Positions 21,020-33,299 of a stretch of DNA of 64,000 bases are shown here, piece after piece. A program made the translations under genes and the position numbers. The notes beneath the pieces are model-generated. The model saw only the letters and a list, made by a program, of their open reading frames with translations, did no database searches and was not told where the DNA came from. Within the stretch, counting starts at the first letter, position 1. The number at the start of each line of letters is the position of its first letter. The DNA lies in assembly GCF_009769385.1 (NCBI RefSeq), contig NZ_ML775962.1:314955-378954 (forward strand), given 5' to 3'. Source of the stretch: Saccharothrix deserti. Its GTDB lineage: Bacteria > Actinomycetota > Actinomycetes > Mycobacteriales > Pseudonocardiaceae.

Positions 21020-22397
21020 ATGATCACCGTCCTGCCCATCGACACGCCAGGACTCGGCGACCGCACCTACCTGGCCCACGACGGCGCGGTGGCCCTGGTG
21101 GTCGACCCGCAGCGCGACTACGACCGGGTGCTCGGCCTGGCGCGGGCCGCGGGCGTGCGCATCACCCACGTCTTCGAGTCCCACATCCACAACGACTACG
21201 TGACCGGTGGCTACGAACTCGCCCGTGAGGAGGGTGCGCAGTACCTGCTCAACGCCGACGACCCGGTCTCCTTCGAACGGGTCGGCGTGCGCGACGGCGA
21301 CGTGGTCGAGGTCGGCGACCGGATGCGGGTGGAGGTCCTGCACACCCCCGGCCACACCCACACCCACCTGTCCTTCGCCCTGTCGGAAGGCGGTGAACCG
21401 GTCGCGGTCTTCACCGGCGGCTCACTGCTCTACGGCTCCACCGGCCGCCCGGACCTGCTGGGCCCGGACCACACCGACGCGCTGGCGCACGCCCAGTGGC
21501 ACTCGGCCCGCCGGTTGGCAGGCGTTCTGCCCGACGCCACCGCCGTCTACCCGACGCACGGTTTCGGCAGCTTCTGCTCGGCCACCCAGTCCGAGGCCAC
21601 CACCGGCACCATCGGCCAGGAGAAGCTGTCCAACCCGGCGCTGACCCGGGAACTGGACAGCTACGTCGAGGAACTGCTCGCCGGGCTCGACGCATACCCG
21701 GCGTACTACGCGCACATGGCCGCCGCGAACTCCGCCGGACCGGGCCGGCCGGACCTCTCACCGCCCGCCGAGGCCGATCCGGTCGAACTGCGGCGCCGCA
21801 TCGCGGCCCACGAGTGGGTCGTCGACCTGCGCAGCCGGACCGCGTTCGCGGCCGGGCACGTCGCGGGCACGGTGAACTTCGGCCTCGACGGCCCGTTCGT
21901 CACCTACCTCGGCTGGCTCATCCCCTGGGGCACGCCCGTGACGCTGCTGGGCGAAACCGTCGAGGACGTCGCGGAGGCGCAGCGCGAACTGGTCCGCATC
22001 GGCATCGACCGCCCGGCCGCGATGGCCACCGGCAGGCCCGAGGACTGGGCGGGCGGCGAGCCGCTGCGCCACGGCCACCTTCGCCGACCTCGCCGCCGAG
22101 TCGGCCCGGGACCCGAGGACCGTCGTCCTCGACGTGCGCCGGAACCAGGAGCGCGCCGAACAGCACATCGCCGGCTCCACGCACATCCCGATCCACGAAG
22201 TGCTCGACCGCCTCGACGAGATCCCGGCAGGCCCGATCCGGGTGCACTGCGACGGCGGCTACCTCGCCGGCGTGGTGGCCGCACTGCTCGACGCCCACGG
22301 GGTCGACGTCGTGGCGATCGACGACACCTTCGACAACGCAGGCCCTGCCGGTCTGCCCCTCGCCTCCGCCCCGGAACACCAGGAGATCCACGCATGA
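21020..22397 (+). CDS. persulfide dioxygenase-rhodanese fusion (apparent frameshift at ~22070)
   Basis: The first frame (ATG 21020) encodes a metallo-beta-lactamase-fold dioxygenase: the metal motif appears as ESHIHNDYVTGG, further ligands as LHTPGHTHTH and YPTHGFGSF, typical of ETHE1-like persulfide dioxygenases that oxidise persulfide to sulfite. A first rhodanese-like domain without catalytic Cys follows (VVDLRSRTAFAAGHVAGTVN). After GGEPLR the frame becomes shadow-like; removing the C at 22070 restores TATFADLAAESARDPRT and a second rhodanese domain with HCDGGYLAG, to the stop at 22395-22397. The repaired length, about 458 residues, equals the usual size for this fusion. It is either a true frameshift, which would leave the dioxygenase half intact, or a sequencing error. 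Confidence 0.8.
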
Positions 22398-22984
22398 CGC
22401 GGCACCTCGGCACCGTCGACGGCCCATCGCTCCAGCAACGCCTCGACGACGCCACCAGCCCCGCCCCGCGCCTGATCGACGTCCGCACGGCCGCGGAGTT
22501 CGAGGCCGGGCACATCCCCGGCGCGGTCAACGTGCCGCTGGACGTGCTCAAGGAGCGGTTGGACGACCTGTGTCCCCTGCTGCGCGGCCAGGACATCGTC
22601 CTGGTCTGCCGATCGGGGCAGCGCGCCGGCCAGGCTCAGGAGGCGCTGGCCGGCGCCGGCCTCGGCGACAGCCAGGTGCTCGCCGGCGGCATCGCAGACT
22701 GGGAGAGGACCGGCGGCGAACTCGACCGCGGCCGACAGGTGTGGGAGCTGGAACGCCAGATCCGCTTCGTGGCCGGCGCAGTGGTCCTCGCGGCCGTGCT
22801 CGCCAGCGTCGTCGTGCCGCAGGCGAAGTGGCTGGCGGCTCTCATCGGCGGCGGGCTGGTCGTCGCCGCCTTGTCGAACACCTGCGCTTTGGGCATGGCA
22901 CTGGCTCGGATGCCGTGGAACCGCCGCCGCGGCGAGTCGCCGATCGACCGGCTCACCGCGGACCGGCTCACCGCGGACCGGTGA
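22394..22984 (+). CDS. membrane-anchored rhodanese with DUF2892 domain (YgaP-like)
   Basis: ATG 22394 overlaps the preceding stop by four bases. The 196-residue protein has an N-terminal rhodanese domain (LIDVRTAAEFEAGHIPGAVN) with active-site loop CRSGQRAG, and a C-terminal DUF2892 module of two membrane helices (FVAGAVVLAAVLASVVV and AALIGGGLVVAALSNTCALG). This is the YgaP architecture, in which the sulfurtransferase is held at the inner face of the membrane. The last residues contain a short duplication (LTADRLTADR). Its neighbour is a TSUP exporter, so it may hand sulfur species to export. Confidence 0.85.
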   Translation: MTRHLGTVDGPSLQQRLDDATSPAPRLIDVRTAAEFEAGHIPGAVNVPLDVLKERLDDLCPLLRGQDIVLVCRSGQRAGQAQEALAGAGLGDSQVLAGGIADWERTGGELDRGRQVWELERQIRFVAGAVVLAAVLASVVVPQAKWLAALIGGGLVVAALSNTCALGMALARMPWNRRRGESPIDRLTADRLTADR

Positions 22985-24486: not shown

Positions 24487-24525
24487 TCGATGGCGTTTGT
24501 CGATGGTGTTTGGCGATGGCGTTTC
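24487..24525. repeat. three tandem 13-base repeats before the nucleotidyltransferase gene
   Basis: TCGATGGCGTTTG, TCGATGGTGTTTG and GCGATGGCGTTTC follow one another without gaps, ending 42 bases before the chosen start of the nucleotidyltransferase. Direct repeats in a leader may be a regulator-binding array. Confidence 0.55.
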
Positions 24526-24567
24526 GGCGTGCACGCGGTGCCGAGCAGTTCGGTTCGGAGAGCCCTG

Positions 24568-25653
24568 ATGGCAAACGGCGACGCGACGCGCGGTCGTTTC
24601 TCACCGGTACGGCCGTTATTGGCCGGCGATGTCCTCGACGGCGACCGGGTGGCGGGTTTCGCCTGGCGGCCGGGTGACGGCGGAAAACCGTCGACGCACT
24701 TGGACGACAAGTTGCTCCTCGCCGGCGACGAGCACCTCGCCACGCCCCCGGAGCGCGTGGTGCCGCAGACGTCGGAAGGGGCCGTCGAGTGCGCGCCGAT
24801 GCCGCCCGCCGATCTCGGCGACGGCGCTGTGCGGCCCGGCGCGTCGGTCGACCCGACGGTGCCGCACCGCGTGGACGCGCTGCTGGACCTGCCCGGCGCG
24901 CCGTGGCAGCCCGTCGCGCGGCTGCTGTTCGCCTCGGTGCACGCCACGGGCCACCGGGCGTGGTTGTCCGGCGGTGTGGTGCGTGACGTCGTCAGCGGCG
25001 TGGGGGAGCGGCGCATCAACGACCTCGACCTGTCCGGCACCGTCCCCGCGGGGCGGTTCACCGACATCCTCTACCAGTCGCTGCGTGCGTCGCGCATGTC
25101 GGAGTTCCACACGACCGTGACGCCGGATTCGCTGGTGTGCGCGGTGACGCCTCCCGGCTCGCGCGACCGGCTCATCGAGTACCGGGGCCTGTCGGCGACG
25201 GGTTTCCGGTTCCCGGCCGTCGGCAGCAGCCTGACCGAGGACGTGCGGCAGCGCGACTTCACGTTCAACGCCCTCTTCTACGACGTCCTCGACCACGAGC
25301 TGTTCGACCCGAGTGGCAGCGGTGTGGCCGACCTGACCGCCGACAAGCGGAAGTTCGTGCCGCTCAAGGAGACCGACGACCCGTACGCGCGGGCCGAGGT
25401 CGTGATCCGGGCGTTGAAGTTCGCCCTGCGCTGGGGCGATGCCGCGGAACCCGACCTCACGGGTCTCAACGCGTGGCTCACCCGCCTCGACCCGGACCTG
25501 TGCCGGGCGTTCACCGCGGGCCAGTGGCGCAGGCTGACCCGCGCCTACGAGCGCGCCGTGAAAGCCGACAAGGCCGAACAGCGCGCTTTCGCCGCACGCC
25601 TCGCGCAACCCGGCCGCGAGCTGCTGGAAACCTTGATCGGGGGCGCGAAGTGA
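24568..25653 (+). CDS. CCA-adding/poly(A)-polymerase-like nucleotidyltransferase
   Basis: I chose ATG 24568 with GGAGAG upstream; an ATG at 24490 lies in the tandem repeats. About residues 120-330 form a class II polymerase-beta-type nucleotidyltransferase head: LSGGVVRDVVSG (GG..RD motif), NDLDLSGT (metal-binding Asp-X-Asp) and VRQRDFTFNALFYD (family motif B). The first ~110 residues are not part of the usual enzyme, and the tRNA-binding neck/body/tail is reduced to about 50 residues, so this is unlikely to be the housekeeping CCA enzyme. It is the first gene of a chain with 4-base overlaps. It may make a nucleotide signal or tag an RNA or protein. Catalytic residues look intact; the substrate is unknown. 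Confidence 0.7.
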   Translation: MANGDATRGRFSPVRPLLAGDVLDGDRVAGFAWRPGDGGKPSTHLDDKLLLAGDEHLATPPERVVPQTSEGAVECAPMPPADLGDGAVRPGASVDPTVPHRVDALLDLPGAPWQPVARLLFASVHATGHRAWLSGGVVRDVVSGVGERRINDLDLSGTVPAGRFTDILYQSLRASRMSEFHTTVTPDSLVCAVTPPGSRDRLIEYRGLSATGFRFPAVGSSLTEDVRQRDFTFNALFYDVLDHELFDPSGSGVADLTADKRKFVPLKETDDPYARAEVVIRALKFALRWGDAAEPDLTGLNAWLTRLDPDLCRAFTAGQWRRLTRAYERAVKADKAEQRAFAARLAQPGRELLETLIGGAK

Positions 25654-26885
25654 CCGCCGCGCACCGACCGCTCAGCGCCTGGGTCTCCCACTTCGACGGC
25701 ACCACCCTGGACCCCGTCAACGACGGGGACGACCGCTCCGACGCCCGTGCTTTCGCGCACTTCGCGACGGGTTGGGCGCGCACCACCACGCCGTGGGGCG
25801 ACACCTTCGCACTCGCCCTCACCGACGGCAGCGCGACGGTCGTGGAGCTCGACGACTACGGCCGCCCCATCCCCGTCACCCCCGAGATCGTCCGTGCCGT
25901 CGAACGCGTCGAACGCGACTGGCCCGACGCCCTCCCCGACACCGGAGACCTGGCCGACGCGCCGCTGCCGCTGCGCTACTGGCTCCTGCGACGCCTCGCC
26001 GCGGAAGGCGACCCGCCGGACGAGGTGTTCGCCCTGCTGCCGTGGGACCTGCTCGACCGCGCCGTGACGTCCCTGCTCACCACGCTCGACGACCCGGCCG
26101 CGCCGGGCGAGCTGGTCGAGATGCGGCACTGGCTCACACCCGCCGTGCGCGGTCTGACCGGCCCGCTGGAGCAGCTCGACCACGGTCTGCGCACCGACGA
26201 CCCGCGCGTCGCCCGCCTCGGCGCGTCCGGCCTGCTGGACAACCTGCGGCACATCCCGTTGTCCCGCGTGCCCGCCACGTCCCTCGCCCGACTCGTGCCG
26301 CTGGTGCGGCGCCTGGGCGCGGCCGACCCGCTGTACCGGCACACCGCACGTGTCGTCGAGGCCCGGCTCGTCGGCGAGTCCGCGCCCCGCATGAGCGTGC
26401 GGCTGAACTCCGCGCTGGACGCGGCGGCCAACGACGAGGACGTGCGCGAGCACACGGAGGCCGTCGCCGACGAGGCGTTCAGCGTCCGCTTCGACGAGAC
26501 CCAGGCCGGCTGGGTGCGCGTCCTGGTGCAGGTGCCGAAGCCGACGGGCGGCCTGTTCGGCGACCGCGCGGACGTCTTCGCGCCGATCCGGGTCGCGCCG
26601 CGCGACGAGTCGCCCGAGCAGCGCTACTGGGTCGCCCTCTACCCGGAGGGCGACAAGCTGGTCGGCGTCGTCTCGTTCGCCCTGCCGCGGGGCTGGTCGG
26701 AGGTCGACTGCGACGCCGTGCCCGCGAGCGCGGACGACCTGGCCGCGGAGCACCCGGACGTGCTGCTGCCGTCGCTGCACGCCAGCATCCCGCCCAGCGC
26801 CCGGCAGTGGCTGGAGATCGCCGACGACCTGCCCGCCGGCCACCCGGCGCGCATCGCGGCGCAGCGGTTCGAGGAGTCCCTGTGA
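25650..26885 (+). CDS. unknown protein coupled to the nucleotidyltransferase
   Basis: GTG 25650 overlaps the previous stop (GTGA) and gives 411 residues. There is no signal peptide or membrane segment. The N-terminal ~90 residues look like a small beta domain (WGDTFALALTDGSATVVELD), the middle is helical with repeat-like Leu patterns (LPLRYWLLRRLAAEG; LARLVPLVRRLGAADPLYR), and the C-terminal ~130 residues return to strands (AGWVRVLVQVPKPTGGLF; KLVGVVSFALPRGWSEVD). I do not recognise a family. Tight coupling on both sides (next start also overlaps by four bases) suggests that it forms a complex with the nucleotidyltransferase and the following membrane protein. Confidence 0.6.
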   Translation: MTAAHRPLSAWVSHFDGTTLDPVNDGDDRSDARAFAHFATGWARTTTPWGDTFALALTDGSATVVELDDYGRPIPVTPEIVRAVERVERDWPDALPDTGDLADAPLPLRYWLLRRLAAEGDPPDEVFALLPWDLLDRAVTSLLTTLDDPAAPGELVEMRHWLTPAVRGLTGPLEQLDHGLRTDDPRVARLGASGLLDNLRHIPLSRVPATSLARLVPLVRRLGAADPLYRHTARVVEARLVGESAPRMSVRLNSALDAAANDEDVREHTEAVADEAFSVRFDETQAGWVRVLVQVPKPTGGLFGDRADVFAPIRVAPRDESPEQRYWVALYPEGDKLVGVVSFALPRGWSEVDCDAVPASADDLAAEHPDVLLPSLHASIPPSARQWLEIADDLPAGHPARIAAQRFEESL

Positions 26886-29800
26886 CCGGATCCGGTGCGA
26901 CCGAACTGGGCCACGAGGACCTGCTGGCAGACGACGACGTCTCCACGGAGGCCACGACGACGCGTGGCGTGCAGCTGGTCGATGCCCGCCAGAGGTACCT
27001 CGCCATCGTCAAGGACCGCGTGGCGGCGGGCGACCGGGAGACGTTGGCGGCGTTCGTCCAGGGCCGGCGCGCGGTGCACAAGGTGCTGGGCGCCAACAGC
27101 TCCAACCACCGCGTCCCGGGCCTGACCGGCGAGCCGTTCGTCAAGCGCGACGAACTGCTCGTCCACAGTGGACGCGCGCTCGCCTCGCTCGGGCTGGCCC
27201 TGGTCGACGATCCGGGAGCGGCGAGCGGGCACGTCGAGGTCTTCCGCCGCTGGGTGGACCACGCCGGGCTGCGCGTGCCGAGCGGCCTCGTCCGCGAGGT
27301 GGACGACGGTATCCGCCCCGTCCACCGCGCGGTGCTCGACCACTTGGCCGCCCGCGACGAACTCGACCCCCTCACGCTGACGTGGCTGCTGGAACTCGAC
27401 GGCTGGCTGCACCCCGCCCAAGGCAGGCGACGGCTGCGCACCGGCCCCGGCGTCCAAGTGCTGCTCGACCTCGGCACCGCGGGCCGGCGCGCCGAACTCC
27501 GCCTGTCCTGGACCCGCGACCTGCCGCACGGCCTCATCCCGGACCCGGCCACCATGACCCTCACCTCGGCCGACGAGGCGTTCCACAACGCGCTCTCCGC
27601 GGCCTGGGAACTGGCCGGCGGCCCGCGCTCGCACGCCGTCCTCTGGTCCCTGGCCGACCGGGGCGGTCCGATTCGCCGCGTGGGCGGCCCGTCTCTCGGC
27701 GCGGCGTTCACCGTGCTGTTGGACGAGCACAACCGCCTCAGCCGCCGCGTCCGGGGCCCGCTCACCGTCCGCCGCCTGCAGGCCGGCAACGCCATCGTGG
27801 GCGCGGTCGACGTGAGCAAGCCGGACGCCATCGTGTCGGTCTCCGGCTACGAGGCGAAACTTCGCGTCGTCACCGACAACATGCGCATCATCCTGCCCAG
27901 CGAGGACCGACCGGCCGCGCTGGAAGCCGACCGATCGGGCTTCGCCGACCTCGACCCGGTCGACACGTGGCCCGAGGCCGCCAAATCGGCCCGCCGCATG
28001 GCCACCCGACGACTCCTGACCATCGCCGCGTCCGTCCTCGGTGTGCTGGCCCTGGCCGCGGGCATCCTGTACGGCTTCACCGCCGCCGGCCGTGAAGCCG
28101 ACCAACTCCGCGCCCAATCGGCCACGCTCGCCGCACAGGCCATCGGCCTGCGCAACACCGACCCCGCGTTGGCGGCGAAGGTCGCCTTGGCCGCACACCG
28201 CATCGACCCGACCAACGCCCGTGCCGTGGACGCCCTGCGGGACCTGCTGGGCGACCGGCGCAACGTCGCCCACGCCTGGCAGGCCGATCCCTCGCGGCTG
28301 GACGCGATCGCCGTCAGCGAGACGCTGTCGAGAGTGGTGACGTCCGGCAGCGACCGGCTCACCAAGGTGTGGGCGCTGGACGGCTCGTTCGTCGGCCAGA
28401 TCGGGCAGCACAGCCGCGAACTCGTCACCGCCGACACCCAGGCGTTCGCCGCCGCCCTCCTCGACGACGGCATCGGCCTCTACGACATCGGCGGCGACGT
28501 CCCGACCGAACTGGCGGTGCTGCCCGAGCCGACATGTGCCGCCGAGTACACCACCGAGGTCGCCGACCTGGCGTTCGTCGGCCACGACTCGGCGCTCGTT
28601 GCCGTCTGGGACGACGGCTCGATCAGCACCTACGACGTGGTGACCCGTGAGGAGACGTCGTGCCTGCCGTCCGGCGAGGTGCTCGCCCCGCTCACGTTCC
28701 AGCCGGCGCTCCCGGTGCGGAAGGTCCTGGACGCGGACGTGATCGGGCAGTCCGGCGACGAGCTGGTGGTCGTGCTCCTGCTCACCTCCAACGATGTCGT
28801 GACCGTCCACAAGCCCGGCGCGAGGGCCGCGATCACCGTGCCGGCCAAGGAGATCTCCGGCGAACCGACGCTCGTCGCCGCGTCGGCGGAGGCCGTCGGC
28901 GTGGCCACCGACCGGGGCGTGGCCGTGTGGTCGCGCACCGACCGGGCGCTGCTCGCCAACCCGGCGGGCGGCCTGAGCACCGAGCCGCGCACGATCGAGT
29001 TCTCCGAAGGCCACCTGTTGATCGGCGGCGAGGAAGGCACGGCCGTCGTGCGGATCGGCAACCCCGCGTGGCAGATGGCGGACAGCCTGGGCGACCTCAA
29101 CGGCGGTGACGCCACCGTCGCCGCGATCGACGGGCGCAGCGTGGTGGCCGGTGGACCCGCCGGCCGGGTGTGGGTGATCGCCGACGCCACCAGCGGACTG
29201 CTGCTCGACCAGGAGACGTTCGCCACGGACGTGGACTTCCTCCCCGACGGCCGCATGGTCAGCTCGGCCGTGCCCGGCACATCCGGCCTGCGCGGCGAGT
29301 CGGACGGCACGGTGAGCGATGCGCTCGTCCTGCTCGACCCCAAGCGGTCGCCGGAGACCGTGGCGGGCAAGAGCAACGTCGACGCCCGCTACACCTACGG
29401 CGACGACAACCGCTTCTTCGCCAACGAGATCGCCGCCGTGCCCGGTTTCGCGGCCGCCGCGGGCCAGGTGAACAACACCGGCACCGTCCTGGCGTGGAAG
29501 GACGACCGCAAGGACTCCCCGCGCCAACTGACGCTCCCGGAGCCCGACGACGCGAAGGCCGACCGCACGGCGCACATCATCGCGTCGGTCGGCCTCACCC
29601 CCGACGGCGCGCTGCTCGTCGCGCGGCACGTCACCGGGAAGCTCGGCATCTGGTCCACCGCGACGTGGGACCGGGTCGCCGAACTCGACTTCGAGCCCGG
29701 CAACACCCGGATCGTCGTCCGGCCGGACCGGGTGCTGCTGATCAGCGGTTCGGGCGCGGCCACCGACCTCGTCCGGGTCGACCTGCCGTCCGGCAGCGTC

Positions 29801-30310
29801 AGCCGCCGCGTGCCCGCACCCAAGGTCGAACACCTCACGGCGAGCGCCGACGGGACCACCGTCGTCACGATGACCGAGGACGGCGTGGTGCAGCGGCGCG
29901 ACGCCGACCTCCAGGCAGTCGGGGAGCCGTGGCGGCCCTCCACGTCCGGCGAACCGGTCGGCACCGTCGCCGCCGATCCCGCCGGGCAGCGCGTCGCCAT
30001 CGGTCAGGGCGCCGAGATCCTGGTCTACGACCTCACCACCCACCTGCTCGCACTGCCGGAACTCGCGGCCGACGACAGCACGATCGTCAACGTCACCTGG
30101 TCGCCCGACGGGCAGGTCCTCGCCGGTGTGTCCATGCCACCGCAGCGCGGCGGGAAGCAGGTCAACCCGCTGCGGGTGTGGCAGGTGGGCGACCTCGACT
30201 GGGGCGACCAGGTCTGCGGTTGGGCGGGCGGTGGCTTCACGCCCGACGAGTGGGCCCGCTACGCGGGCGAGGACTCCACGTACATCGACATTTGCGGAGA
30301 GGACCGTTGA
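26882..30310 (+). CDS. membrane-anchored Lon-like/beta-propeller protein
   Basis: GTG 26882 gives 1142 residues. About 30-190 is a helical domain of unknown type. About 200-345 resembles a Lon (S16) proteolytic fold: strand LRLSWTRDLP, GGPSLGAAF at 268-276 (Ser271 in the place of the Lon nucleophile), NAIVGAVD, and SGYEAKL with Lys326 near the expected Lys of the dyad, one or two positions shifted. A single membrane helix follows (about 379-400), then an SFT-like helix (LAAQAIGLRNTDPALAAKVAL) often seen before propellers in actinobacterial STAND-like proteins, and a large WD40-type propeller (460-1140). The N-terminal part is probably cytoplasmic and the propeller outside. There is no NTPase domain. 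Protease activity is uncertain. Confidence 0.65.
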   Translation: MTGSGATELGHEDLLADDDVSTEATTTRGVQLVDARQRYLAIVKDRVAAGDRETLAAFVQGRRAVHKVLGANSSNHRVPGLTGEPFVKRDELLVHSGRALASLGLALVDDPGAASGHVEVFRRWVDHAGLRVPSGLVREVDDGIRPVHRAVLDHLAARDELDPLTLTWLLELDGWLHPAQGRRRLRTGPGVQVLLDLGTAGRRAELRLSWTRDLPHGLIPDPATMTLTSADEAFHNALSAAWELAGGPRSHAVLWSLADRGGPIRRVGGPSLGAAFTVLLDEHNRLSRRVRGPLTVRRLQAGNAIVGAVDVSKPDAIVSVSGYEAKLRVVTDNMRIILPSEDRPAALEADRSGFADLDPVDTWPEAAKSARRMATRRLLTIAASVLGVLALAAGILYGFTAAGREADQLRAQSATLAAQAIGLRNTDPALAAKVALAAHRIDPTNARAVDALRDLLGDRRNVAHAWQADPSRLDAIAVSETLSRVVTSGSDRLTKVWALDGSFVGQIGQHSRELVTADTQAFAAALLDDGIGLYDIGGDVPTELAVLPEPTCAAEYTTEVADLAFVGHDSALVAVWDDGSISTYDVVTREETSCLPSGEVLAPLTFQPALPVRKVLDADVIGQSGDELVVVLLLTSNDVVTVHKPGARAAITVPAKEISGEPTLVAASAEAVGVATDRGVAVWSRTDRALLANPAGGLSTEPRTIEFSEGHLLIGGEEGTAVVRIGNPAWQMADSLGDLNGGDATVAAIDGRSVVAGGPAGRVWVIADATSGLLLDQETFATDVDFLPDGRMVSSAVPGTSGLRGESDGTVSDALVLLDPKRSPETVAGKSNVDARYTYGDDNRFFANEIAAVPGFAAAAGQVNNTGTVLAWKDDRKDSPRQLTLPEPDDAKADRTAHIIASVGLTPDGALLVARHVTGKLGIWSTATWDRVAELDFEPGNTRIVVRPDRVLLISGSGAATDLVRVDLPSGSVSRRVPAPKVEHLTASADGTTVVTMTEDGVVQRRDADLQAVGEPWRPSTSGEPVGTVAADPAGQRVAIGQGAEILVYDLTTHLLALPELAADDSTIVNVTWSPDGQVLAGVSMPPQRGGKQVNPLRVWQVGDLDWGDQVCGWAGGGFTPDEWARYAGEDSTYIDICGEDR

Positions 30311-32280
30311 TGCGCACTTCACGTTCCCTGACGGTCTTCATGGCGGCGGTGGTGCTCACGTCGTGCACCGCAACGGGCGGCGAGCCCGCACCCGCGCCGA
30401 CCGGGCCGTCGTTCGACTCGACCGAGGCCGTCGTGGCGTTCCGCCAGGCGGACCGGGTGCGGTTCGCCAACGCCGCCGGGCGCGTCTGGGGCGACGTCCC
30501 GGTGAAGTCCCCGGACTGGGCGTGGTCGGCCGACGCCGGGCACTTCGCCCTGCTGGACGAGAACCGGCTGCACATCGTGGACTCCGAGACCGGCGAGGAC
30601 GCGTCGCAACCGTGTCCCTGCCACGGCTTGGGCGTGCTGGGTGACAGGTTCGCCACGATCAGCTCCGACGGCGCCGCCCTGCTGTTGTTCGCACCCGGCG
30701 CGGAAGCCGAGCGCGTGCCGCTGCAACGCCCGCTGACCGCAGCCGAACTCGTCGCGGGTGGCCGGGAGCGGGTGGCCGTCGCCGAACCGATCCCCGAGGA
30801 GTTGGCCGACTACCGGGGCCAGAGCGCCCTCTTCACCGTGGACGCCACGGGCGCGCTGACGCCGTTGATCGAGGGCAAGTCGGCCGTGTCGATCTGGGAC
30901 GGCACCACGTCGCCCGACGGGACGAGGCTCGCCACTGTCGAGTCGCCCAGCGGCGGCGCGTGCCACACGCAGCCGGGCGTCTTCTCGTTGCGGTACGACG
31001 AGACCAACCCCGTGCAGGAACGCGCCGTGCCCTCCGACCCCGCGTTCACCCGGGCCGTGCTCGGCGAGGTGCGCATGACGACCGGTCTGCGGTGGGCGGG
31101 CGACGACCTGGTGGTGACGTTCGGGCCCAACCCCGGCTGCCAGAACCTCCTGGCACCCCGTTACCTCACCTACCGGCTGGACGACGGCAAGTGGGAGCAG
31201 CTGGCGGTCGGCGTCCTGGAGCTCGGTTTCGGCGCGGACGGCCGCTCGTACGCCGTCGAACTGCCCGACGTCGTGGAGGCCGGGGAGAGCAGCGTTCTCG
31301 GGGCCGGGAAGTTCGTGGTCACCAATGCCGACGGCACCCGGAAGGAAGTCGGCGACAACGTCCAGGGCTTCGCCCTCACCCCGGCCGAGGAAGCCGCCGG
31401 CGAGCCGAAAGCCCGCCCACTGCCCGAACCCGAGCCCATCGCGGGCACCACCGACCGGGGCGCACCCCTCGACACCGAGTACCGCGACCTCGCGGAGCGC
31501 ATCGCCGACGCGGCCGAGTCCGGAGACCTGAAGGCCCTGGAATCGTTGTGCGGCAAGTGCGACGCGCCGACCCGCGAGCTGATCGGCACGCCGGAGGGAC
31601 GTGAGGCGATCCGCCGCGCTCTGCGCACCCACCCGGCCGTGGACGACCGCTCCGCCACCTACCCGGGTCTGGCCGTCAAGCGGTGCGTGGACGAACCGGT
31701 GCACGCGGAGGCGTGCACCGCGCAGCAGATCGGCGACATCGGTCTGCTGGGCCTGGAACCCGACTTCGACATCCGGGACGGACTTGAGGACATCTTCCGG
31801 GCACCCGTCACGGGATCGGTCCGCCTGGAGGTGGACGAGCGGGGCGACGCGCACTGGGCGGGCCGTTCGAGCTCCGCCGAGCCGTACAAGGTGAAAACGG
31901 CCGTCGAAGGCATGCCCGAGTCGTACTTCTTCATGCCGCCCGAAGGCGACTACTACTGCGGAATTTTCGACGAGATGGCCGGCTGCCAGGGCCGGACCCA
32001 GCCGATCCCGCCACGCCCGGAGTCGTGCGGTGAAGGGCCGTCATGGGGCGGCGGGATGTTCGTGGACTCGTCGGGCAAGGTCGACTTCCTGTGCGCCGGT
32101 GGCGTGATGTTCTACTGGGGCGACAAGAGCGAACCGGGACCGGAGGACCGGTTGGCCGTCGGGCAGACCGTGTCGGCGCTGGGGTACACGTGCACGGCGG
32201 GAGAGCAGGACATGCGGTGCGTCCACGACGCCTCCGGCCACGGGTTCCGGATGGCGCCGGACTCCAACGACCAGTTCTGA
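30310..32280 (+). CDS. propeller-containing lipoprotein of the nucleotidyltransferase operon
   Basis: ATG 30310 overlaps the preceding TGA by one base. The 656-residue product has a lipoprotein signal (MRTSRSLTVFMAAVVLTSC, lipobox LTSC, Cys19), so it is anchored on the outer face of the membrane. Residues 35-365 contain propeller-like blades (WAWSADAGHFALLDENRLHI). A Pro/Glu linker near 375-390 leads to an alpha-helical region, and the C-terminal ~120 residues are Cys-rich (YYCGIF, MAGCQ, DFLCAGG, GYTCTAG, MRCVHD) and likely disulfide-bonded. Two extracellular propellers encoded side by side suggest a surface sensor complex. The family is not recognised. Confidence 0.65.
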   Translation: MRTSRSLTVFMAAVVLTSCTATGGEPAPAPTGPSFDSTEAVVAFRQADRVRFANAAGRVWGDVPVKSPDWAWSADAGHFALLDENRLHIVDSETGEDASQPCPCHGLGVLGDRFATISSDGAALLLFAPGAEAERVPLQRPLTAAELVAGGRERVAVAEPIPEELADYRGQSALFTVDATGALTPLIEGKSAVSIWDGTTSPDGTRLATVESPSGGACHTQPGVFSLRYDETNPVQERAVPSDPAFTRAVLGEVRMTTGLRWAGDDLVVTFGPNPGCQNLLAPRYLTYRLDDGKWEQLAVGVLELGFGADGRSYAVELPDVVEAGESSVLGAGKFVVTNADGTRKEVGDNVQGFALTPAEEAAGEPKARPLPEPEPIAGTTDRGAPLDTEYRDLAERIADAAESGDLKALESLCGKCDAPTRELIGTPEGREAIRRALRTHPAVDDRSATYPGLAVKRCVDEPVHAEACTAQQIGDIGLLGLEPDFDIRDGLEDIFRAPVTGSVRLEVDERGDAHWAGRSSSAEPYKVKTAVEGMPESYFFMPPEGDYYCGIFDEMAGCQGRTQPIPPRPESCGEGPSWGGGMFVDSSGKVDFLCAGGVMFYWGDKSEPGPEDRLAVGQTVSALGYTCTAGEQDMRCVHDASGHGFRMAPDSNDQF

Positions 32281-32330
32281 TCCCGGCCTGACGAGTGGAA
32301 GAAGATCTTCGGTGATCGGATGACCAGGCC

Positions 32331-33299
32331 ATGAGCAATCCCGTCGACTCGAACGGCATCCGGGGCGTTCCGCCACGGGCGATCCACGAACGGCAACTCG
32401 ACCACGACATGCTGCGCCTTCAGCGCGCCGCGTCGGCAAGCCACCAGCGTGGTCAACTCGTCGAGGCGGTCCGGGGCGTCGCAGCGGCTCTGCTCGCGGT
32501 CGCCGGCATCCTGGTCACGATCCTCGGCCACGGTCGACCGGCCGTGGCCATCACCGGCTTCTTCTGGTTCCTCGTCTCCGCGTTCCTGCTCAAGCGCCTG
32601 GCCGGGACAACGGCCCGACAGGGAGCCCTGCTCCAGGAGATGTTCGACACCGGCCTGTTCCACCTGCCCTGGCGCTCCACGGTCGCGGGCGACCCGATCC
32701 CCGAGCCCGACGTCAACCGACTCGCCCGCCAACTCACGCGGGGGAGCGCCAAGGACCAGCGCATCACCGGAGGCTGGTACGACCCCACCTCCGACGTCCA
32801 CCACCCCTACGACGTGCTCATCGCCCAGGAGCAGAACCTCGCCTGGGACGCCCGCCTCCGCCGCCGCTACAGCTACTTCATCGTCGCCGCCGCCGTCCTC
32901 TGGACCGCGATCGGTCTGGCTGTCGGCCTGGCGATCGCCAACGCGACCCTCCCCGACACGCTCCTCAGCTTCTTCGTCCCGTCACTGGCCGCCTACCAGA
33001 TCGCCATCGAGATCTGGGCGGGCCAGCAGAAGGTCGCCGACGAGCGAGAACGACTCACCAAGATCGTCAACAGTGAGCTGCGCGACGGTCGTCCCGGGCC
33101 GGTGCCCGAACGCGAGTGGCACCGGCTCCGTGACGTTGCCCGCGATGTGCAGGACGGCATCCTGCGCACCCGCCTGGACCCCACCCGAGTGCCGGAGTGG
33201 TTCTACAAGCGATTCCGCGACGGCGACGAACGCGATTTCGCCGACACCGCCGAGGGCCACCGCCTCCGCCTCGCCGCGCACACGGCGCCGCCCGCATAA
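32331..33299 (+). CDS. S-4TM (SMODS-associated four-transmembrane) effector-type protein
   Basis: The 322-residue protein has the S-4TM plan: N-terminal IHERQLDHDMLRLQRAA in place of the 'RQ...L..L.A' start, two membrane helices (about 45-90), then LLQEMFDTGLFHLPW, GGWYD, and AQEQNLAWDARLRRRYS, which match the family's conserved 'FD..L..L.W', 'WY' and 'R.N..WD..LRR.Y' blocks, and two further helices (about 180-235) before a charged C-terminus. S-4TM proteins are known as membrane effectors in nucleotide-activated (CBASS-like) systems, where they are thought to disrupt the membrane. Here no SMODS/CD-NTase gene is adjacent; the nearest nucleotidyltransferase is at 24568, and this gene lies 50 bases after the lipoprotein in the same direction. 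Confidence 0.8.
   Translation: MSNPVDSNGIRGVPPRAIHERQLDHDMLRLQRAASASHQRGQLVEAVRGVAAALLAVAGILVTILGHGRPAVAITGFFWFLVSAFLLKRLAGTTARQGALLQEMFDTGLFHLPWRSTVAGDPIPEPDVNRLARQLTRGSAKDQRITGGWYDPTSDVHHPYDVLIAQEQNLAWDARLRRRYSYFIVAAAVLWTAIGLAVGLAIANATLPDTLLSFFVPSLAAYQIAIEIWAGQQKVADERERLTKIVNSELRDGRPGPVPEREWHRLRDVARDVQDGILRTRLDPTRVPEWFYKRFRDGDERDFADTAEGHRLRLAAHTAPPA

What the first reader, a model, noticed from the sequence alone, without database searches (positions are those of the whole stretch)
24487..33299. Candidate new nucleotide-signalling or surveillance system: CCA-like nucleotidyltransferase, Lon-like/propeller membrane protein, lipoprotein and S-4TM effector
Four genes overlap by 1-4 bases and a fifth, S-4TM-like gene lies 50 bases downstream. 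S-4TM proteins are known effectors of nucleotide-activated immunity, normally next to a SMODS/CD-NTase. Here the only nucleotidyltransferase is of the CCA/poly(A) type with an extra N-terminal domain and a reduced tRNA-binding body, and two proteins place beta-propellers outside the membrane. An extracellular sensor passing a signal to an intracellular nucleotide-making enzyme that triggers a membrane effector would be a new arrangement. The linkage of the S-4TM gene to the operon is inferred from direction and spacing only.
Basis: partly seen in the sequence, partly recalled or inferred. Interest (0 to 1): 0.88.

Follow-up and report, generated by a model that had tools for sequence, protein, structure and literature searches.

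The report
Actinobacterial five-gene membrane-effector signalling operon
A conserved, swappable set of bacterial genes pairs an enzyme of the RNA-tailing family and a membrane-anchored protease-like protein carrying an outside sensor-like propeller with one of two known membrane-acting immune effectors, which suggests a so far undescribed type of bacterial alarm system.

Summary
Window 24490-33299 carries four genes overlapping by 4 bases each and an S-4TM gene 50 bases downstream. The doubtful linkage is now supported: locus L144 has all five genes in the same order; its sister L142 has the same first four genes but SLATT, another SMODS-associated membrane effector, in fifth place. Eleven intact loci of the Streptomyces family, and one remnant, also end in SLATT. 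In all, 15 of 26 loci have S-4TM or SLATT as next gene; 11 of 26 have no recognised one.

The nucleotidyltransferase keeps its catalytic GG and DxD motifs (25 of 25) but not the CCA-type EDxxR motif or the tRNA-binding body; a separate CCA-type gene exists in 15 of 15 genomes tested. The large protein has a Lon-type domain with an invariant Ser-Lys pair (25 of 25), one membrane helix and a WD40 propeller predicted outside. No SMODS gene lies near the operon in 25 of 25 genomes or records tested.

Best reading: a modular conflict system in which a poly(A)/CCA-type enzyme stands where CBASS has its cyclase. Product, signal direction and phage protection are untested. My paper searches listed no description.

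The parts
24490..25653 (+). NT: class II poly(A)/CCA-type nucleotidyltransferase with an extra N-terminal ~125 aa and only ~100 aa after the head domain; true start may be ATG 24568
   Evidence: PF01743 E 3e-11, residues 157-284; profile best PDB hit E. coli poly(A) polymerase 3aqm E 4.8e-13; alignment A5; start: L143 aligns from residue 27
24970..25029 (+). catalytic GG (residues 161-162) to DxD (178-180) segment of the NT
   Evidence: invariant in 25 of 25 NT rows
25650..26885 (+). g2: 411-aa protein of no known family, coupled to the NT
   Evidence: no Pfam or PADLOC match, no PDB profile match; spacing to NT -20 to 11 bases in 24 of 26 loci, not in L084 (divergent) and L095 (remnant)
26882..30310 (+). 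g3: Lon-like (S16) domain, one TM helix, WD40 propeller
27449..27946 (+). Lon-type S16 domain of g3 (about residues 190-355), dyad S271 (27692-27694) and K326 (27857-27859)
   Evidence: hhalign prob 93.4, E 2.4e-7, 15 controls E >= 0.089; alignment of both dyad residues; Lon_C 26.3 bits over cut-off 21.1 in homologue L146; S and K 25 of 25
28013..28069 (+). TM helix of g3 (residues 378-396), positive charges before it: Lon side predicted in, propeller out
   Evidence: hydropathy; K/R 5 before, 1 after
28289..30211 (+). WD40-type propeller region of g3 (approximate borders)
30307..32280 (+). g4: lipoprotein, possibly with propeller-like repeats
   Evidence: lipobox-like N-terminus; weak PD40 in homologue
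32331..33299 (+). S-4TM effector
   Evidence: PF18159 E 5.3e-82, PADLOC 4TM PDLC00720 2.9e-163; next gene also in L144

Best explanation
A modular, mobile membrane-coupled conflict (probably anti-phage or anti-toxin) system. g3 is a one-pass membrane protein with a Lon-type Ser-Lys protease domain in the cytoplasm and a propeller outside; with lipoprotein g4 it watches the envelope. A disturbance outside switches on the protease domain; its most likely substrate is in the NT-g2 pair (g2 as holder or inhibitor). The released NT, a poly(A)/CCA-type enzyme without templating motif or tRNA body, then makes a small nucleotide or oligo(A)-like product, which opens the membrane effector (S-4TM here, SLATT elsewhere) and stops or kills the cell. 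Shown: the parts, their conserved active-site residues, co-inheritance, and effector exchange. Inferred: order of events, product, substrate of the protease, topology, toxicity, protection.
For: NT, g2 and g3 are co-inherited: pairwise distances correlate at 0.91-0.94 over 23 loci, permutation maxima 0.24-0.37. Effector slot: S-4TM in window and L144; SLATT in L142, sister of L144 with 97% support, and in 11 intact loci of the Streptomyces family at gaps of -8 to 73 bases, plus remnant L095. PADLOC effector models were matched by all 7 of the 15 effectors that were scanned. NT GG, DxD, R255-D256 and N260 25 of 25; g3 dyad 25 of 25. Separate CCA-type gene in 15 of 15 genomes. SMODS in 5 of 25 operon-bearing genomes or records, none near the operon: own, G818, G920 and L088's genome on other contigs, G848 3.3 Mb away. 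dN/dS 0.11-0.64 in 23 gene comparisons from five pairs. Patchy: 10 clear of 394 genomes of the Streptomyces family and 5 clear of 390 of the own family, own included. Mobile or defence-like surroundings at several loci: plasmid, integrase, Prim-Pol, NB-ARC, caspase, trypsin/Trypco1 genes.
Against: 11 of 26 loci have no S-4TM or SLATT next to the core (tblastn only). No nucleotide product, protease activity, toxicity or protection is known. g2 has no recognised fold. The NT may act on RNA instead. g4's propeller is weak.
Confidence: 0.5

Rival explanations
1. The NT is itself an RNA-directed effector: it adds nucleotides to tRNA or other RNA 3' ends and blocks translation, g2 supplies RNA binding or acts as antitoxin, and S-4TM/SLATT is a parallel, independently triggered kill arm.
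For: The closest solved structures are poly(A) polymerase and CCA enzymes, which act on RNA. NT and g2 are the most constant pair, as in toxin-antitoxin pairs. The eight class II loci keep NT-g2-g3 without S-4TM or SLATT.
Against: The tRNA-binding body is missing by length, and the EDxxR motif is not kept: E at 296 in 2, D at 297 in 17, R at 300 in 3 of 25 rows. The effector slot is filled by nucleotide-system effectors of two families.
Confidence: 0.25
2. Guard logic as in Panoptes: the NT product is made all the time and holds the effector closed; loss of product, or protease attack on NT-g2, releases the effector.
For: Panoptes pairs a non-CD-NTase synthase with a CBASS-type membrane effector whose ligand restrains it (PMC12657218, abstract and passages seen). 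A protease in the operon fits removal of the synthase.
Against: No direct evidence. Loci without a recognised effector keep the NT, which a pure brake would not need.
Confidence: 0.13
3. An envelope-stress or developmental regulator of actinobacteria, not an immune system; the membrane proteins are channels used for signalling.
For: All relatives found are actinobacterial, also in the two searches not limited to actinobacteria (plasmids; species genomes). Surface propeller proteins and Lon-type proteases can serve stress responses (recalled).
Against: Patchy presence, plasmid and integrase surroundings, gene-order change and effector exchange fit conflict systems better.
Confidence: 0.12

Closest known systems
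CBASS (SMODS/CD-NTase plus effector such as S-4TM or 2TM proteins)
   Same: Same effector families (PF18159 S-4TM; PADLOC 2TM and 4TM effector models); a nucleotidyltransferase in the same operon; the own genome holds a plain SMODS + S-4TM pair on contig C4
   Different: No SMODS gene; the NT is poly(A)/CCA-type; extra g2, Lon-TM-propeller and lipoprotein. The two NT families are distantly akin: a staphylococcal CD-NTase paper reports a weak CCA-domain match (PMC10686824, passage)
Panoptes (mCpol OptS + S-2TMbeta OptE; PMC12657218)
   Same: A non-CD-NTase synthase paired with a CBASS-like membrane effector
   Different: Other synthase family, other effector families, additional envelope-facing protease-like protein and lipoprotein
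DRT9 and other reverse transcriptases with SLATT (PMC12483538, PMC8934634)
   Same: A polymerase paired with a SLATT protein; in DRT9 a homopolymer product is made
   Different: Reverse transcriptase with ncRNA versus poly(A)/CCA-type NT; SLATT only occasional in DRT9
Calp (CalpL/T/S; PMC11417357)
   Same: Lon-type protease inside a nucleotide-signalling defence system
   Different: CalpL carries a SAVED sensor domain; g3 has a TM helix and propeller, and Pfam showed no SAVED domain
NTP-dependent conflict systems of multicellular bacteria (PMC7159879)
   Same: Modular, operonic, TM and propeller parts, SLATT as effector in GAP1 systems
   Different: No MoxR-vWA, GTPase or EACC1/caspase core in this operon; the whole word Lon was not found in its main text
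Lon-like-TM-WD40 genes beside CRISPR type I-E on Streptomyces plasmids (L132, L133)
   Same: Same g3 architecture; in L133 a propeller protein follows (Vgb_lyase)
   Different: No NT, g2, S-4TM or SLATT among the annotated neighbours; an S1-domain protein instead

Membership tests
CBASS | CD-NTase/SMODS synthase in the operon | tested here: not met
   PF18144: one SMODS in own genome, on C4, not C9; in 25 operon-bearing genomes or records 5 have SMODS, all on other contigs or 3.3 Mb away. Other CD-NTase families were not searched genome-wide
CBASS | CBASS-type effector adjacent | tested here: met
   S-4TM, SLATT/2TM
CBASS | cyclic oligonucleotide product activates effector | not testable with these tools
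   needs biochemistry
class II CCA-adding enzyme / poly(A) polymerase | head domain with GG...DxD and RD motifs | tested here: met
   25 of 25 rows; PcnB alignment
class II CCA-adding enzyme / poly(A) polymerase | EDxxR nucleotide-selection motif (its role is recalled) | tested here: not met
   against PcnB the motif falls on positions 296, 297 and 300, followed by a 4-residue insertion; E 2, D 17, R 3 of 25
class II CCA-adding enzyme / poly(A) polymerase | body and tail that bind tRNA | tested here: not met
   about 100 aa after the head; profile match to PcnB ends at 310 of 387; judged by length, no structure
housekeeping CCA enzyme | sole CCA enzyme of the genome | tested here: not met
   separate strong PF01743 gene in 15 of 15 genomes
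Lon/S16 protease | S16 domain with Ser-Lys dyad | tested here: met
   hhalign E 2.4e-7, prob 93.4, 15 controls E >= 0.089; Lon_C over cut-off in L146; dyad 25 of 25. Against: no Pfam hit in the window protein or 11 N-termini; PDB profile search negative
Lon/S16 protease | proteolytic activity | not testable with these tools
   needs biochemistry
Panoptes | mCpol synthase and S-2TMbeta effector | tested here: not met
   Pfam and PADLOC scans of the operon show neither
S-4TM effector | PF18159 domain over the gathering score | tested here: met
   275.9 bits, cut-off 26.9
anti-phage defence system | protection from phage | not tested
   experiment needed

The most novel reading that the evidence does not exclude
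A categorically new signalling immunity class: poly(A)/CCA-type nucleotidyltransferases, freed from tRNA, make an undescribed second messenger for S-4TM and SLATT pores, and the alarm is raised from outside the cell by a membrane-spanning Lon-type protease with a propeller receptor, so that the attack is recognised at the surface rather than in the cytoplasm.
Probability: 0.3. Interest if true: 0.92.

Novelty: new variant of a known kind. Interest (0 to 1): 0.77.

Why it matters
If the NT does signal, another enzyme family joins CD-NTases and Cas10/mCpol as a maker of defence messengers, and the ligand question for S-4TM and SLATT becomes testable in a compact operon with natural effector swaps. 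A protease-like receptor that spans the membrane would also be an unusual way to detect attack at the surface. Even if the NT acts on RNA, the operon is a compact, conserved, apparently mobile system of which PADLOC matched only the effector.

Tried and rejected
Rejected: (a) NT as housekeeping CCA enzyme. (b) S-4TM as chance neighbour. (c) A SMODS partner nearby.

Led nowhere: g2 against PDB (no match up to E 5), Pfam and PADLOC; g3 N-terminus against PDB (only an unrelated hit at E 0.63) and Pfam (nothing in 11 members); single-sequence g2 search over 396 phylum genomes (own genome only); g3 single-sequence search over 150 family genomes (own full match, elsewhere only partial matches to the TM/WD40 parts); NT single-sequence search (other hits look like ordinary CCA enzymes); g2 in phages (none); promoter and terminator scan (none of either); S-4TM paper searches (none). 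hhalign of g3 with the first 11 sequences gave prob 46 against the combined Lon set and 16 and 9 against its two halves; with 10 more rows (9 g3 homologues and P0008) it gave 93, 76 and 80. The label YlbL for one half of that set, and the identity of the catalytic Ser and Lys, are recalled.

L146 (g3-g4 without NT) is not among the 26 loci but is a row in the g3 counts. The 26 loci: window, L142-L145, L059, L071-L080, L083, L084, L086, L088, L090-L093, L095, L096. 24 of the 26 have NT, g2 and g3 (not L095, L145).
Full report
Five genes lie on the + strand: NT 24490-25653, g2 25650-26885, g3 26882-30310, g4 30307-32280 and S-4TM 32331-33299, with overlaps of 4, 4 and 4 bases and a gap of 50. 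The NT matches PolyA_pol at E 3e-11, the last gene S_4TM at E 5.3e-82 and PADLOC's 4TM effector model over its full length. PADLOC matched none of the other four genes.

The linkage question was the weak point. A first relative came from a Streptomyces plasmid, NZ_CP109179.1: all four core genes at 34-38% identity, in the order g3-g4-NT-g2, followed by a gene annotated as SLATT. A g2 profile then matched 11 of 394 genomes of that Streptomyces family, 10 of them clear (the eleventh, G663, shows no core gene). A scan of species genomes gave 15 loci, of which 5 repeat earlier ones. In the window's own family 6 of 390 genomes matched, own included, one of them weak (G1148). With the window and the plasmid this gives 26 distinct loci, listed under Tried and rejected.

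In the own family, L144 has NT-g2-g3-g4-S-4TM, core identity 45-57% and S-4TM identity 65%, the S-4TM start overlapping the end of g4 by one base; Pfam and PADLOC confirm the S-4TM. L142 has NT-g2-g3-g4 in the same order but a gene 16 bases downstream that matches PADLOC's 2TM and RT-associated SLATT models; Pfam gave it no family. A tree of 23 loci places L142 and L144 as sisters with 97% support and the window with L143, so the effector has been exchanged inside this small clade while the core was kept. In class I of the Streptomyces family (L059, L071-L077, L083, L092, L096) the next gene after g2 is SLATT, at -8 to 73 bases in 11 of 11; remnant L095 keeps part of NT, g2 over two frames and half of SLATT. 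PADLOC was run on 7 of the 15 effectors and matched all 7; the rest are called by tblastn similarity. Distances of NT, g2 and the g3 N-terminus correlate at 0.91-0.94, against permutation maxima of 0.24-0.37.

Against a fixed five-gene unit: 11 of 26 loci (L143, L145, L084, and the eight class II loci L078, L079, L080, L086, L088, L090, L091, L093) show no S-4TM or SLATT by tblastn. Four of the class II loci (L078, L079, L080, L088) have beside the core a protein with a shared hydrophobic C-terminus (by eye); the two that were scanned show pentapeptide repeats, one over and one under the cut-off. In L145 g2 matches the window only to residue 249; in L084 the NT lies divergently, and the contig ends about 500 bases after g4.

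The NT. Its profile aligns best with E. coli poly(A) polymerase (3aqm, E 4.8e-13), over the head domain. GG, DxD, R255-D256 and N260 are invariant in 25 of 25 rows. The EDxxR motif, which selects the nucleotide in CCA enzymes (recalled), falls on positions 296, 297 and 300 against PcnB and is not kept: E 2, D 17, R 3 of 25. Only about 100 residues follow the head. A separate strong PF01743 gene exists in the own genome and in 14 of 14 other operon-bearing genomes tested (in G857 the operon NT itself fell below the search), so the operon NT is an extra copy.

g3. Residues about 190-355 resemble the Lon (S16) domain. Evidence: hhalign of 21 N-termini (20 g3, and P0008 from a plasmid) against 23 Lon and YlbL-type domains gives probability 93.4 and E 2.4e-7, while one reversed, 12 shuffled and two unrelated controls give E 0.089 or worse. 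With the first 11 sequences it was E 2e-4, probability 46. A homologue, L146, reaches Pfam's Lon_C cut-off (26.3 against 21.1 bits), and a search of 198 genomes with the g3 profile picked up, besides the own gene, one fragment that reads like an S16 domain by eye. S271 and K326, which align with the Ser-Lys dyad, are invariant in 25 of 25. Against it: no Pfam match in the window protein and none in the PDB by sequence profile. A helix at 378-396 with more positive charge before than after it suggests Lon inside, propeller outside. The C-terminal part matches WD40 structures (E 5.3e-34). g4 has lipobox-like N-termini; its propeller rests on one sub-threshold PD40 match.

No SMODS partner. The own genome has one SMODS match, on contig C4 beside an S-4TM paralogue, an ordinary CBASS-like pair; the window's contig C9 has none. 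Of 25 operon-bearing genomes or records (own and 10, 14; L095's genome was not tested) 5 have a SMODS match: own, G818, G920 and L088's genome on other contigs, and G848 3.3 Mb away. Other CD-NTase families were not searched in whole genomes.

Selection and setting. dN/dS was 0.11-0.64 in 23 gene comparisons from five pairs, lowest for SLATT in the four pairs that have it. Loci sit on a plasmid, between two integrase genes (L144) or between an integrase gene and an integrase N-terminus (L086), near a Prim-Pol gene (L142) and near NB-ARC (L144, L145), caspase (L145) or trypsin and Trypco1 genes (L090). I did not make a control for how often random genes have such neighbours. This is the setting of conflict systems; it is not proof.

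Mechanism. I think an envelope event is read by the propeller proteins, passed to the Lon-type domain, and from there to NT-g2, whose product opens the S-4TM or SLATT channel. Panoptes shows that a synthase outside the CD-NTase family can serve a CBASS-like membrane effector (PMC12657218, abstract and passages); DRT9 shows a polymerase product acting in defence, with SLATT as occasional partner (PMC12483538, passages; also PMC8934634, passages); Calp shows a Lon protease in nucleotide signalling (PMC11417357, passages). In PMC7159879 (passages) SLATT appears as effector in GTPase-centred systems, and Lon was not found as a word in the main text. PMC8195603 (passages) mentions a pol-beta NT in another setting; PMC10686824 (passages) a weak CCA-type match in a CD-NTase; PMC7288161 (passages) had nothing on this. 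Searches for a prior description; no listed title or abstract start, and no passage I read, describes this gene set. The 2015 survey of nucleotide-centred systems by Burroughs and others (recalled) is not held, so mention there cannot be excluded.

Verdict: real, conserved, modular, probably a conflict system; mechanism open.

Noticed in passing
G000:C4:256579-257984 (L097, L128): The own genome also has an ordinary adjacent SMODS + S-4TM pair, a useful internal comparison.
   Followed up: partly
L132 6045-12861, L133 5176-12750: Streptomyces plasmids carry a Lon-like-TM-WD40 gene next to CRISPR type I-E genes; in L133 a Vgb-lyase-type propeller protein and an S1-domain protein follow, with no NT or SLATT annotated.
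   Followed up: partly
L099 9489-12093, L100 5922-10450: S-4TM genes next to proteins that look kinase-like by eye (weak TCAD9 match in L099; L100 not scanned) rather than SMODS.
   Followed up: partly
L080 13736-14668, L084 8941-9903, L086 7790-8578, L090 7783-8589, L093 7900-8790: A divergent gene with a shared C-terminal pattern upstream of the core in five loci; four of the five were scanned and have no Pfam match.
   Followed up: partly
L144 1607-2470 and 15459-16412: Two similar integrase genes flank the operon, as if it lay in or between mobile elements.
   Followed up: partly
L146 4336-10956: A g3-g4-like pair without NT, preceded by two unknown genes; the g2 profile matched weakly there (E 5.2e-6), so the gene just upstream of g3 may be a distant g2 relative.
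   Followed up: no
L095 9267-11559: A remnant of the system: part of NT, g2 over two frames and the second half of SLATT, without g3 or g4.
   Followed up: partly
window 21020-22984: The long ORF with metallo-beta-lactamase-like start and rhodanese-like end (by eye) changes character in the middle, as a frameshift or two merged genes would look.
   Followed up: no
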